This document shows, in pieces, positions 3,930 through 33,296 of a stretch of 35,045 nucleotides of DNA. Within the stretch, counting starts at the first letter, position 1. Each line of letters starts with the position of its first letter. The notes beneath the pieces were generated by a model that did no database searches, was not told where the DNA came from, and worked only from the letters and a program-made list of their open reading frames with translations. Origin of the DNA: Prevotella sp. (GTDB lineage Bacteria > Bacteroidota > Bacteroidia > Bacteroidales > Bacteroidaceae); the NCBI GenBank assembly GCA_017477435.1, contig JAFUVV010000013.1, positions 1 to 35,045 on the forward strand. Reading direction: 5' to 3'. A program made the translations under genes and the position numbers.

Positions 3930-4616
3930 ATGGAAAACTCAAAGGAAATATTCAATCGCTTACTGTCGCTCCCGTTGTTCTCGGGGCTCAGCTACGACGA
4001 CGTCATCGAGATAGCGGGCTATGCCCGTCTCGACTTCCACGAGGTGACGGCAGGCGAGGCGATTGCCCGTGAGGGCGAGGCGAGCGATCATGTCATTTTC
4101 ATGATATCGGGAAAGGTGACTACTACTTCCTATTCCGACGACCGTGCCTATTCTCTTACCGAATATCTCGATTCGCCATTTGCATTCCAGCCAGAGACGT
4201 TGTTTGGCAAAAATCAGTACTTCGTCTGTACGCTCACGGCACTGACCACATGCAGCTATCTCGTTCTTTCCAAGCGCGATCTCGTTCGCATTTCTGAAGT
4301 GAACGAAGTCTTCCGGTTTAATCTTTTCAGCTTTCTGTCCACGAGCAGTCAGATGCTCTATCGCCGGCTATGGCGCGTTCCGCCGCGCACTCCAGCCGAG
4401 GCAATAGCTCGCTTCCTGCAACTGCACTGCTTGCGTCCGGCCGGGAGAAAAGACATTCATATTAAGCTCAGACGTTTTTCCGAGGAGACAGGAGTGAACT
4501 ATTATGCTCTTTCGAAGACCATTGCCCGCATGGAGGACGAGGGTCTGCTGAAGCATACACGAGGAGAGATAAGCATTCCTGCAATGGAACGACTTATAAA
4601 AGACACAAGAAACTGA
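3930..4616 (+). CDS. Crp/Fnr family transcriptional regulator
   Basis: The 228-residue protein has an N-terminal cyclic-nucleotide-binding-like beta-barrel (about 15-120: LPLFSGLSYDDV, AIAREGEASDHVIFMISGKV) and a C-terminal winged helix (about 150-225: TPAEAIARFL, EETGVNYYALSKTIARMEDEGLL). No Fnr-type cysteine cluster is present, and the usual cAMP-binding Arg-Ser is not evident, so the ligand is unknown. It sits 70 bp after apbE on the same strand and converges with the ribose-type operon across a shared terminator. Whether it controls that operon cannot be told from sequence. Confidence 0.9.
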   Translation: MENSKEIFNRLLSLPLFSGLSYDDVIEIAGYARLDFHEVTAGEAIAREGEASDHVIFMISGKVTTTSYSDDRAYSLTEYLDSPFAFQPETLFGKNQYFVCTLTALTTCSYLVLSKRDLVRISEVNEVFRFNLFSFLSTSSQMLYRRLWRVPPRTPAEAIARFLQLHCLRPAGRKDIHIKLRRFSEETGVNYYALSKTIARMEDEGLLKHTRGEISIPAMERLIKDTRN

Positions 4617-9620: not shown

Positions 9621-9720
9621 TACAGTACAAGATTCATGTACTCGCAGTACAAAGCCCATGTACTCGCAGTACAACGTTCATGTACTCTGAGTACACGGCC
9701 CATGTACTGCCGCCAGTACC
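9621..9720 (-). repeat. 22-bp-period palindrome array 1
   Basis: Four units AGTACA-N7-TGTACT start at 9624, 9646, 9668 and 9690, exactly 22 bp apart, with 3-bp linkers CGC, CGC, CTG. The centres are AGATTCA, AAGCCCA, ACGTTCA and CGGCCCA, the reverse orientation to arrays 3 and 4. After a longer 6-bp linker, AGTACC (9715-9720) looks like the remains of a fifth left arm. The array lies upstream of the ribose-type operon promoter, 14 bp from a long hairpin. Confidence 0.93.
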
Positions 9721-9965: not shown

Positions 9966-9979
9966 TTGATCACATCTTG

Positions 9980-10053
9980 AGCCTCTTGTCGGATTCGAAC
10001 CAACGACCCCGAGATTACAAATCACGTGCTCTGGCCAACTGAGCTAAAGAGGC
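9980..10053 (-). tRNA. tRNA-Thr (anticodon TGT)
   Basis: A cloverleaf folds on the - strand: acceptor GCCTCTT/AAGAGGC, D-arm GCTC..GAGC, anticodon loop TTTGTAA, T-arm GTTGG/CCGAC with TTCGAAT. The anticodon TGT reads ACA and other ACN threonine codons. The middle of the anticodon stem is a U-U mismatch (CGTGA/TCTCG). CCA is not encoded. The gene starts 4 bp after the SRP RNA and is probably processed from the same transcript. Confidence 0.95.
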
Positions 10054-10057
10054 GGGT

Positions 10058-10158
10058 GGGCAAGCTGCTCATATCGCGCCGCTACAACCTAATACCCTTG
10101 CTACGTTCCCGTCCTGGGGGATTCAAAGGGAGCTGGCCGTATGAGACTTGCCCGTTTG
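10058..10158 (-). ncRNA. ffs: bacterial SRP RNA (4.5S type)
   Basis: On the - strand GGGCAAG near the 5' end pairs with CTTGCCC at the 3' end. The apical region contains CCCCCAGGACGGGAACGTAGCA, carrying the conserved AGG..CGGAA..AGCA core that binds the Ffh M domain. Length about 100 nt fits the small bacterial SRP RNA, which targets nascent membrane proteins with Ffh. A promoter (10165-10195) lies just upstream and tRNA-Thr just downstream. The 5' end is set by the promoter position and is approximate. Confidence 0.85.
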
Positions 10159-10164
10159 CGGGTG

Positions 10165-17980: not shown

Positions 17981-18065
17981 AGTACATGGGCTTTGTACTG
18001 CGAGTACAAGACCAATGTACTACGAGTACAACATTCATGTACGCAGAGTACAAAAGCCATGTACT
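17981..18065 (+). repeat. 22-bp-period palindrome array 2
   Basis: Four units AGTACA-N7-TGTACT start at 17981, 18003, 18025 and 18047, exactly 22 bp apart, with linkers GCG, ACG, CAG. The centres are TGGGCTT, AGACCAA, ACATTCA and AAAGCCA, so orientation is mixed within the array. One arm is altered (TGTACG in unit 3). It lies between the regulator and tamB. Confidence 0.93.
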
Positions 18066-29540: not shown

Positions 29541-29649
29541 GGGAGAGTACGTCGGCTGCAGTACATGGCCTTTGTACTCCGAGTACATGGGCTTTGTACT
29601 GTGAGTACATGGCTTTTGTACTGCGAGTACATGACCTTTGTACTCTCCC
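29541..29649 (+). repeat. 22-bp-period palindrome array 3, the most regular copy
   Basis: Four units AGTACA-N7-TGTACT start at 29560, 29582, 29604 and 29626, exactly 22 bp apart. All eight arms are intact, with linkers CCG, GTG, GCG and centres TGGCCTT, TGGGCTT, TGGCTTT, TGACCTT. A further perfect 10-bp inverted repeat, GGGAGAGTAC (29541-29550) and GTACTCTCCC (29640-29649), encloses the array. It lies between the divergent zinc-ribbon and nrnA genes. Confidence 0.95.
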
Positions 29650-29746
29650 CAAGTCTTGCGCTCGCCTTCGCTGGTCGTCATCAGAGGCTCATCTGTCCCA
29701 TTTCCCTGCGAGCATAAAAAAGGTATAAAGAAAATCTTGTTTTCCT

Positions 29747-31799: not shown

Positions 31800-33209
31800 A
31801 TGTCTCTGATAAAATCGATTTCGGGTATCAGGGGTACTATCGGCGGCCATGCCGGTGACACCCTCAATCCTTTGGATATAGTGAAGTTTACGTCGGCCTA
31901 TGCAGCCTTCATCCGTTCTACGACCCCCGCTGGCTCGGGACGCATTGTCGTGGGCCGCGATGCTCGCATCTCCGGCGAGATGGTGAAGAACGTTGTCTGC
32001 GGTACGCTGATGGGGATGGGCTTCGATGTCGTCAACATCGGGCTTGCCACCACGCCTACCACCGAACTCGCCGTGCGCATGGCTGGTGCCGACGGCGGTA
32101 TAATCATCACTGCCAGCCATAATCCGCGCCACTGGAACGCACTGAAGCTGCTCAACGCTGAGGGCGAGTTTCTCACAAAAGCCGACGGCGAACAGGTGCT
32201 CCGGCTGGCCGAGGCCGAGGAGTTTGAATATGCCGACGTCGACGGTCTGGGAAAATATTGCGAAGACAACAGCTTCGACCAGCGTCATATTGATAGCGTG
32301 CTCGCACTCAGTCTTGTTGATACCGAGGCCATCCGCGCTGCGAAATATCGCGTGTGTGTCGATGCCATCAACTCGGTAGGCGGAGTGATACTGCCGAAGT
32401 TGCTCGACGAACTCGGAGTGGAGTATAAGATGCTGAACGGTACTCCCAACGGCGATTTTGCCCACAACCCCGAACCTCTTGAGAAGAATCTGCAGGGCAT
32501 CATGGACGAGATGCGCAGCGGGAAGTACGACCTGGGCATCGTTGTCGATCCCGATGTCGACCGTCTGGCGTTCATCTGCGAGGACGGCCGCATGTTTGGA
32601 GAAGAATACACACTCGTCAGTGTTGCCGACTATGTGCTCTCGAGCATGAAGGCTCAGGGCGCTGAAGCGAATCGGCTGAATACTGTCAGCAATCTCAGCA
32701 GCACGCGTGCCCTTCGCGACATCACCTCCCGCTATGGCGGTACATACACGGCAGCTGCCGTGGGCGAGGTGAACGTGACGACGAAGATGAAGGAAGTGGG
32801 TGCTGTGATTGGCGGCGAGGGCAACGGCGGAGTGATCTATCCGGAGAGCCACTACGGCCGCGATGCACTTGTGGGAATAGCATTGTTCCTTAGTAATCTG
32901 TCGCACAAAGGATTGAAGGTCAGCCAGCTGCGGGCCACCTATCCCGACTATTTCATTGCAAAGAACCGCGTCGATCTGACTCCCGAAGTGGATGTCGACG
33001 CAATATTGGCCCGTGTGAAAGAGATTTACAAGGACGAGCAGGTGAACGATATCGACGGAGTGAAGATTGACTTCCCCGACAAGTGGGTGCACCTTCGCAA
33101 GTCTAACACAGAGCCTATCATCCGTGTCTACAGTGAAGCGTCGACGATGGCTAAGGCAGATGCGCTGGGCAAGCGAATCATGCAGGTGATCGAAGAGTGT
33201 GCCTTGTAG
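31800..33209 (+). CDS. glmM: phosphoglucosamine mutase
   Basis: The 469-residue phosphohexomutase has the phosphoserine loop TASHNPRHWNALK (S106), the metal-binding DPDVDRLAF (about 246-254) and the phosphate-binding SNTEPIIRVYSEA near the C-terminus (about 436-448). GlmM converts glucosamine-6-phosphate to glucosamine-1-phosphate for UDP-GlcNAc and hence peptidoglycan and lipid A. The family also includes phosphomannomutases, so specificity is inferred from similarity and its place after nrnA and DUF4827. Palindrome array 4 starts 2 bp after the stop codon, so its 3' UTR would carry the array. Confidence 0.88.
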   Translation: MSLIKSISGIRGTIGGHAGDTLNPLDIVKFTSAYAAFIRSTTPAGSGRIVVGRDARISGEMVKNVVCGTLMGMGFDVVNIGLATTPTTELAVRMAGADGGIIITASHNPRHWNALKLLNAEGEFLTKADGEQVLRLAEAEEFEYADVDGLGKYCEDNSFDQRHIDSVLALSLVDTEAIRAAKYRVCVDAINSVGGVILPKLLDELGVEYKMLNGTPNGDFAHNPEPLEKNLQGIMDEMRSGKYDLGIVVDPDVDRLAFICEDGRMFGEEYTLVSVADYVLSSMKAQGAEANRLNTVSNLSSTRALRDITSRYGGTYTAAAVGEVNVTTKMKEVGAVIGGEGNGGVIYPESHYGRDALVGIALFLSNLSHKGLKVSQLRATYPDYFIAKNRVDLTPEVDVDAILARVKEIYKDEQVNDIDGVKIDFPDKWVHLRKSNTEPIIRVYSEASTMAKADALGKRIMQVIEECAL

Positions 33210-33211
33210 GC

Positions 33212-33296
33212 AGTACGTGGGCTATGTACTGTGAGTACATGGGCTTTGTACTGCGAGTACAAGAACGTCCGACTGAGGGTACATGGGCTTTGTACT
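33212..33296 (+). repeat. 22-bp-period palindrome array 4
   Basis: Four units start at 33212, 33234, 33256 and 33278, exactly 22 bp apart. Arms are AGTACG/TGTACT, AGTACA/TGTACT, AGTACA/CCGACT (degenerate) and GGTACA/TGTACT; three centres are TGGGCTT or TGGGCTA. The period survives despite the decayed third right arm. The array begins 2 bp after the glmM stop and lies before the shared terminator. Confidence 0.93.

What the first reader, a model, noticed from the sequence alone, without database searches (positions are those of the whole stretch)
29541..29649. A family of intergenic arrays of AGTACA-N7-TGTACT palindromes at an exact 22-bp period
Four loci in 35 kb carry the same architecture: exactly four 19-bp dyads (6-bp arms, 7-bp centre) joined by 3-bp linkers, for an invariant 22-bp period. 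The arms are nearly invariant, while centres and linkers vary, so the dyad symmetry and phasing are under selection. At 22 bp every dyad faces the same side of the helix, as for a cooperative DNA-binding protein. Each array can also fold in two registers, AGTACA..TGTACT with a 7-base loop or TGTACT..AGTACA with a 3-base loop. Array 3 is the best copy, with all arms intact, and is enclosed by a perfect 10-bp inverted repeat. I cannot place it in a named repeat family. A bound chromosome-organising protein, a REP-type mobile hairpin or an RNA 3'-end element are all possible.
Basis: seen in the sequence. Interest (0 to 1): 0.88.

Follow-up and report, generated by a model that had tools for sequence, protein, structure and literature searches.

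The report
DUF6078 genes and their 22-bp arrays
Rows of short mirror-image DNA sites, set exactly 22 bases apart and scattered through this bacterium, belong to a pairing not found in the papers searched: genes of an uncharacterised protein family usually sit beside such a row, with site sequences that differ from gene to gene, as if each protein carried its own landing pad.

Summary
The genome holds 550 exact AGTACA-N7-TGTACT dyads (reversed control 0). In 1.10 of 2.32 Mb, 81 of 81 arrays found by a four-unit detector extend to four dyads and no further; an arm-based detector gave 79 of 82. 78 of 78 placed arrays are intergenic. A second class, xxTATC-N7-GATAxx, has mostly five dyads. Among periods 16-32 only 22 gives many arrays.

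The key is a gene family. DUF6078 (PF19555, function unknown) genes sit beside such arrays, with arms that vary between genes. In an unselected set, 8 of 9 have a 22-bp array just after the gene, against 0 of 546 control windows. The two DUF6078 genes found in this genome lie beside its two dominant classes.

Half-sites hold where centres drift (3/280 versus 80/196), with almost no compensatory change, favouring a DNA-binding protein over hairpins or RNA. Best reading: DUF6078 dimers bind each dyad; array copies have spread between genes. Binding, copying and function are not shown. Nearest analogue: REP/TnpA-REP, but DUF6078 has no HUH motif.

The parts
9624..9708 (-). Array 1: four AGTACA-N7-TGTACT dyads at 22 bp; centres nearer AAGCCCA than TGGGCTT (minus orientation)
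17981..18065 (.). Array 2: four dyads at 22 bp, third right arm TGTACG; mixed centre orientation (><<<)
29560..29644 (+). Array 3 (the finding): four exact dyads at 22 bp; centres TGGCCTT, TGGGCTT, TGGCTTT, TGACCTT (plus orientation)
33212..33296 (+). Array 4: four dyads at 22 bp with 1, 0, 3 and 1 arm mismatches; starts 2 bp after the stop of a phosphoglucomutase/phosphomannomutase gene (31800-33209)
29541..29550 (.). Left arm of the 10-bp inverted repeat around array 3 (partner 29640-29649); peculiar to this copy
29552..29559 (.). Left cap of array 3 (tcggctgc); consensus read outward from the arrays is G-C-M-G-C-C-R-R, both sides pooled
29645..29652 (.). Right cap position of array 3 (ctccccaa); does not fit the cap consensus well in this copy

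Best explanation
Each array is a cluster of binding sites for a DUF6078 protein. A dimer reads one 19-bp dyad through two 5-6 bp half-sites (GTACA here). Four or five dimers sit on one face of the DNA because the pitch is two helical turns. A DUF6078 gene normally carries an array in cis, mostly directly 3' of the stop codon, in some members 60-130 bp 5' of the gene, and paralogues in one genome can use different half-sites. In some genomes, as here, copies of the roughly 100-bp capped array have spread through the intergenic space as a dispersed element, while half-sites stay under constraint and centres drift. SHOWN: geometry, class-typical unit number, intergenic placement, constraint on half-sites, gene-array linkage. 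INFERRED: that DUF6078 itself binds the array, as a dimer and cooperatively. UNKNOWN: how copies spread and what the complexes do; my preferred guess is a REPtron-like resident system whose protein also marks or represses its own gene.
Confidence: 0.66

Rival explanations
1. REP/REPIN-type mobile hairpins spread by a Y1 (HUH) transposase acting on single-stranded palindromes; DUF6078 is only a neighbour or cargo.
For: Own genome has 4 Y1_Tnp (PF01797) hits; one Y1 gene ends 43 bp before an AGTATC array, another has an AGTACA array about 680 bp away. High copy number and intergenic placement and no target-site duplication suit this.
Against: Arms show almost no compensatory change. Both Y1 genes lie among other hairpin repeats, by eye. 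DUF6078 linkage holds in Bacteroides, Parabacteroides, a Treponema plasmid and faecal scaffolds. DUF6078 has no HUH motif in 31 sequences. Y1 linkage was looked at in the own genome only.
Confidence: 0.1
2. RNA-level element: the array is transcribed as a string of hairpins, either as a 3'-end or stability element or as an RNA partner of DUF6078 in the manner of type III toxin-antitoxin repeats.
For: Cis arrays often start at or just after the DUF6078 stop codon, so they may be in its mRNA. In tandem intergenic regions 30 of 43 arrays have the centre in one orientation to transcription (p 0.014).
Against: Dispersed arrays are as common between divergent genes as the number of such regions predicts (p 0.73). 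Almost no compensatory arm change in the own class. Outer flanks do not pair. No Rfam family matches an array in the window at gathering score. Some cis arrays are 5' of the gene.
Confidence: 0.12
3. A passive minisatellite-bearing MITE without function, like BrickBuilt of P. gingivalis: copies spread once and now decay.
For: Dispersed, intergenic, capped on both sides, whole-array copying (in-register centre identity 23.4 of 28 versus 22.1-22.5 shifted).
Against: Half-sites are constrained while centres are not, between and within species. Unit number is nearly fixed here. Two orthologous arrays persist between species whose flanks are 76% and 81% identical.
Confidence: 0.08
4. The arrays are operators of an ordinary regulon: DUF6078 is a repressor or activator and the dispersed arrays control nearby genes.
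For: Cis arrays beside the DUF6078 gene could be autoregulatory sites, above all those 60-130 bp upstream. Weak HTH resemblance.
Against: There is about one AGTACA array per four to five intergenic regions of 110 bp or more, with no preference for promoters; arrays are rare within 90 bp of a start codon (9 of 83 versus 33 of 73 for stops). The sister genome lacks them at 6 of 6 aligned sites.
Confidence: 0.12

Closest known systems
REP elements with TnpA-REP (REPtrons, RAYT/REPIN)
   Same: Short palindromic intergenic repeats in high copy number with a partner gene, repeats concentrated near that gene in some systems, more than one system in a genome (passages of PMC8266576; PMC8049555).
   Different: REPs are palindromes of 20-50 nt preceded by a tetranucleotide, mostly GTAG, recognised as single strands by an HuH-superfamily protein. 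Here four or five 19-bp dyads at a fixed 22-bp pitch, almost no compensatory arm change, no HUH motif in the partner.
BrickBuilt MITE of Porphyromonas gingivalis
   Same: Dispersed element of a Bacteroidales genome with an internal tandem repeat of about the same length (23 nt) and conserved ends (passages of PMC4596501).
   Different: Repeat number varies between loci and strains, 19 copies in ATCC 33277, leader and tail with terminal repeats like those of IS5-family elements; no partner gene named in the passages read; 'palindrom' does not occur in the text.
MqsA-like or C-protein-like HTH regulators
BOX and Correia elements (recalled, not searched)
   Same: Species-restricted, intergenic repeats of about 100 bp; BOX is modular with a repeated middle part and two ends.
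   Different: No known cognate protein gene with its own array (recalled).

Membership tests
REP/REPtron (TnpA-REP) | Partner protein is an HUH/Y1 tyrosine transposase | tested here: not met
   The linked protein matches PF19555 and no Y1 model; no H-hydrophobic-H motif in 31 sequences.
REP/REPtron (TnpA-REP) | Palindrome preceded by a conserved GTAG tetranucleotide | tested here: not met
   Conserved letters are AGTACA..TGTACT (or xxTATC..GATAxx) and caps GCMGCCRR; no GTAG in the column tables of units, linkers and 12 flanking positions.
REP/REPtron (TnpA-REP) | Partner gene has repeats of its kind beside it; repeats dispersed genome-wide | tested here: met
BrickBuilt-type MITE | Variable number of tandem repeats between leader and tail | tested here: not met
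   Own AGTACA arrays have four units (81 of 81; 79 of 82); ends are about 8-bp caps. Numbers do vary (2-8) in UBA2739.
MITE in general | Target-site duplication | tested here: not met
   No consistent excess of direct repeats at any offset; the strongest was a 6-mer at offset 14 in 2 of 81 arrays.
Lambda-repressor-like HTH protein | HTH fold in DUF6078 | tested here: inconclusive
DUF6078 (PF19555) | Score above Pfam cut-off | tested here: met
   Own two genes 102 and 75.9 bits against 27; 9 of 9 plasmid/phage loci above it.
Type III toxin-antitoxin | Direct (non-dyad) repeats placed 5' of the gene (definition recalled) | tested here: not met
   Repeats are dyads and in the unselected set lie 3' of the gene (8 of 9; 5' 0 of 9).
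DUF6078 as array-binding protein | Direct binding to the cognate array | not testable with these tools
   Needs EMSA, DAP-seq or ChIP-seq.

The most novel reading that the evidence does not exclude
DUF6078 and its arrays form an undescribed class of two-part genome resident: a small protein plus its own row of double-stranded sites at two-turn pitch, found in Bacteroidales and on a Treponema plasmid. The site specificity can be re-coded between paralogues of one genome, and the rows can multiply until there is one for every four to five sizeable intergenic regions, setting out a species-specific lattice of nucleoprotein patches.
Probability: 0.5. Interest if true: 0.93.

Novelty: categorically new. 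Interest (0 to 1): 0.86.

Why it matters
It gives a testable role to a protein family with no known function that is present in 60 of 100 sampled genomes of the genus. It explains an abundant repeat as half of a gene-array pair. The pairs would be a natural library of protein-DNA specificities, since each gene lies beside a candidate site. Searches for 'DUF6078' and 'PF19555' in 5.39 million open-access papers returned none; subscription papers and preprints were not covered.

Tried and rejected
Local duplication: rejected. Terminator or promoter element: rejected for the dispersed copies on context. Stem-loop maintained by pairing: not supported in the own class. In the TATC class the outermost base is complementary less often than shuffled (0.37 versus 0.50) but the second base more often (0.75 versus 0.57), and relatives' outer base more often (0.58 versus 0.49), so this test is clear for the own AGTACA class only. 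Target-site duplications: none consistent. Empty sites: one search gave 7 array loci with flanks in the sister genome. I aligned 6 and dropped L115:10315, whose left match lay 2 kb away. None of the 6 sister sites has an AGTACA array, but the intergenic DNA is too diverged to show a clean junction; one has an ACATAA 22-bp array. Arm class tracking protein phylogeny: not significant overall. HMM searches of solved structures, PHROGs and PADLOC with DUF6078: no useful match. Plain Foldseek searches could not be run; the two structure comparisons are second looks at Foldseek's own top chains. Viral contigs: no exact pair, no DUF6078 relative for three queries. Papers: apart from passages of PMC4596501, PMC8266576 and PMC8049555 I saw search listings only.

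One array of 29 overlapped a predicted gene start; with the gene finder retrained on 1.10 Mb none of 78 did. The gene finder is my own script. Array counts depend on the detector: 82 with two or more units by arms (79 of four, 2 of three, 1 of two), 81 by a detector that looks for four units; lone dyads (3 in the 408 kb) were left out. A sixth, partial DUF6078 hit in the phage collection (MT839260.1, 47% covered) was not fetched. The six DUF6078 loci first found through their arrays were kept out of the tests.

Full report
WHAT IS THERE. The window holds four arrays of four AGTACA-N7-TGTACT dyads at exactly 22 bp. The genome it comes from (2,320,315 bases, 62 contigs, 78% complete) holds 550 exact dyads and 343 adjacent pairs, against 0 for the reversed pattern. 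I read 61 stretches, 1,101,479 bases. An any-arm detector (four units, 6-bp arms, 7-bp centre) found 117 arrays with at least 38 of 48 half-site letters agreeing: 81 AGTACA, 22 of a class xxTATC-N7-GATAxx, 14 others (ACATAA, ATTAAA, TCTTAA and so on). The control, a block-shuffled copy of the sister-genome stretches, gave 0. Scanning periods 16 to 32 at 41 of 48, only 22 gives many (96-108 by centre length); 18 and 20 give at most 3. The 81 AGTACA arrays extend to four units and no further, with background at positions -1 and +5; an arm-based detector gave 79 of four, 2 of three and 1 of two. The TATC class has five units in 13, six in 7 and four in 2 of 22. Extrapolated, about 171 AGTACA and 46 TATC arrays per assembly.

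ANATOMY. Of 324 AGTACA units, arm changes are 92 one-sided and 1 symmetric double; a structure kept by base pairing would favour the latter. Centres read N-R-R-N-Y-Y-N (purine/pyrimidine symmetry 91-96%), yet exact complementarity is at or below shuffled (positions 1/7: 0.154 versus 0.437). Centres of different arrays match best in register (23.4 of 28 versus 22.1-22.5 in shifted register, p at most 1e-4): whole arrays were copied. No consistent target-site duplication.

PLACEMENT. 78 of 78 AGTACA arrays away from contig ends (3 more are at ends) lie between genes in sequence that is 82% coding by my gene finder; 43 tandem, 20 divergent, 15 convergent, as expected from intergenic regions of 110 bp or more (p 0.73). 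They come close to stop codons (33 of 73 within 90 bp) but rarely to start codons (9 of 83; p 1.5e-6). The centre orientation shows a weak bias in tandem regions (30 of 43, p 0.014), which I cannot explain. In a relative, one array (L150) lies inside a predicted gene.

DISTRIBUTION. Exact pairs occur in 11 of 398 same-genus genomes including this one (others 1-8) and in none of 35 same-genus and 24 more distant relatives. In those species the core is xGTACA-N7-TGTACx, and 30 of 49 arrays have four units, while UBA2739 has 2 to 8. RUG12886 looks like a chimeric MAG: some contigs are 96-97% identical to this genome and carry its arrays, the rest is a relative at about 70-92%. In 20 stretches of it (about 270 kb) no AGTACA array was found (one degenerate AGTAAA-like array scores 39 of 48), and at 6 of 6 aligned sites the AGTACA array is missing; at one, an ACATAA array with the same 22-bp geometry stands in its place. 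Survey stretches: 350 kb from 20 genus genomes gave 9 weak candidates (36-42 of 48), 273 kb from 20 other families 2 AT-rich ones.

CONSTRAINT. In 7 orthologous array pairs between species (some share a locus, 3 are anchored on one flank only) the 5-bp cores changed at 3 of 280 positions, centres at 80 of 196 (p 3e-32). In 4 pairs within the species the counts are 0 of 160 against 4 of 112, plus 3 of 36 in linkers. The half-sites are thus kept while centres drift.

THE PARTNER. In six species an array overlaps the stop codon of the same gene while mostly only the gene side aligns between species. That gene is DUF6078 (PF19555). These six were found through their arrays, so I tested without that bias. 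(a) Own genome: two DUF6078 genes found; the C10 gene has an AGTATC array and the C30 gene an AGTACA array, ending 108 and 130 bp upstream. (b) This genome and relatives carrying AGTACA arrays: 17 loci fetched by HMM, 2 partial genes dropped, the own C10 locus added, giving 16; 11 have an array on one side (7 on the 3' side, 4 on the 5'), with GTTACC, TGTTCC, TGTTTC, TGTTTA, TTGACA, AGTATC, AGTACA and AGTACA-N8 arms. Paralogues in one genome differ, for instance TGTTCC, TTGACA and AGTACA in G429. (c) Plasmid and phage collections: 9 loci (Parabacteroides distasonis 2, Bacteroides finegoldii 1, Treponema saccharophilum plasmid 1, unannotated human-faecal scaffolds 5). 8 of 9 have a 22-bp array just 3' of the gene. 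Five of the eight share a GTTTC core (AGTTTC, TGTTTC, GTTTCC twice, GTTTCA), two have TGCCA, one AGTACT-N8. Controls: 0 of 500 survey windows and 0 of 46 windows from the same loci, p 4e-17. Among periods 18 to 26 only 22 occurs. The class beside a gene tends to be the class dispersed in that genome: GTTACC dyads number 4 and 7 in the two genomes with a GTTACC-linked DUF6078, of which 2 and 1 are at the gene, and 0 in four others; TATC pairs 123 here, 4 in chimeric G422, 0 in five others; the AGTACT-N8 sequence at 13 places in 7 P. distasonis records, its own included. TGTTCC was less clear: G429 has one more adjacent pair at another place, but G432 and G426 have 10 and 9 single dyads, mostly of a different longer palindrome. 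Against the model, G388 (99% complete) has an exact AGTACA pair and no DUF6078 hit.

READING. The simplest account is a protein that recognises its own row of dyads. The row beside the gene suggests autoregulation or a homing or maintenance site. The dispersed rows are copies of that element, tolerated away from promoters and under selection to stay bindable. REPtrons are the nearest known kind in behaviour (passages of PMC8266576 and PMC8049555), but the tested defining features, an HUH transposase and GTAG, are not met. BrickBuilt (PMC4596501, passages) resembles it as a capped tandem repeat, but its number varies and no partner gene is named in the passages read. I call the pair categorically new because neither the protein nor the array falls in a described functional family in what I could search, and because nothing found there pairs such a gene with such a row; binding, copying and function remain open.

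Noticed in passing
L061:7040-7200; L096:3300-3450 and 4370-4500 (own genome C1, C23): A second kind of phased array: CCTAGG-like palindromes repeating about every 10 bp (one helical turn), picked up as period 20. Not linked to a gene.
   Followed up: no
L240:1402-1854 and L241:1468-1941 (own genome C21, C56): Two IS200-like Y1 transposase genes lie amid hairpin repeats of another kind (by eye), look like separate REP-type systems, and each has a 22-bp array nearby.
   Followed up: partly
RUG12886 (CACZRN01..., handle G422): Public MAG RUG12886 appears to be a chimera of this species (96-97% identical contigs) and a relative at about 70-92%.
   Followed up: partly
L033:5743-5996 versus L070:8598-8603: A 254-bp insertion present in RUG12886 and absent in this genome, with 6 bp of overlap at the junction; contains no 22-bp array.
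   Followed up: partly
window 29560-29644 and other arrays: Centres like TGGGCTT/TGGCTTT recur in arrays with different arms (AGTACA, xxTATC, ACATAA), by eye, so something about the centre may be shared across classes.
   Followed up: partly
window 9979-10160, minus strand: Bacteroidales small SRP RNA directly followed by tRNA-Thr on the minus strand, 270 bp from array 1.
   Followed up: no
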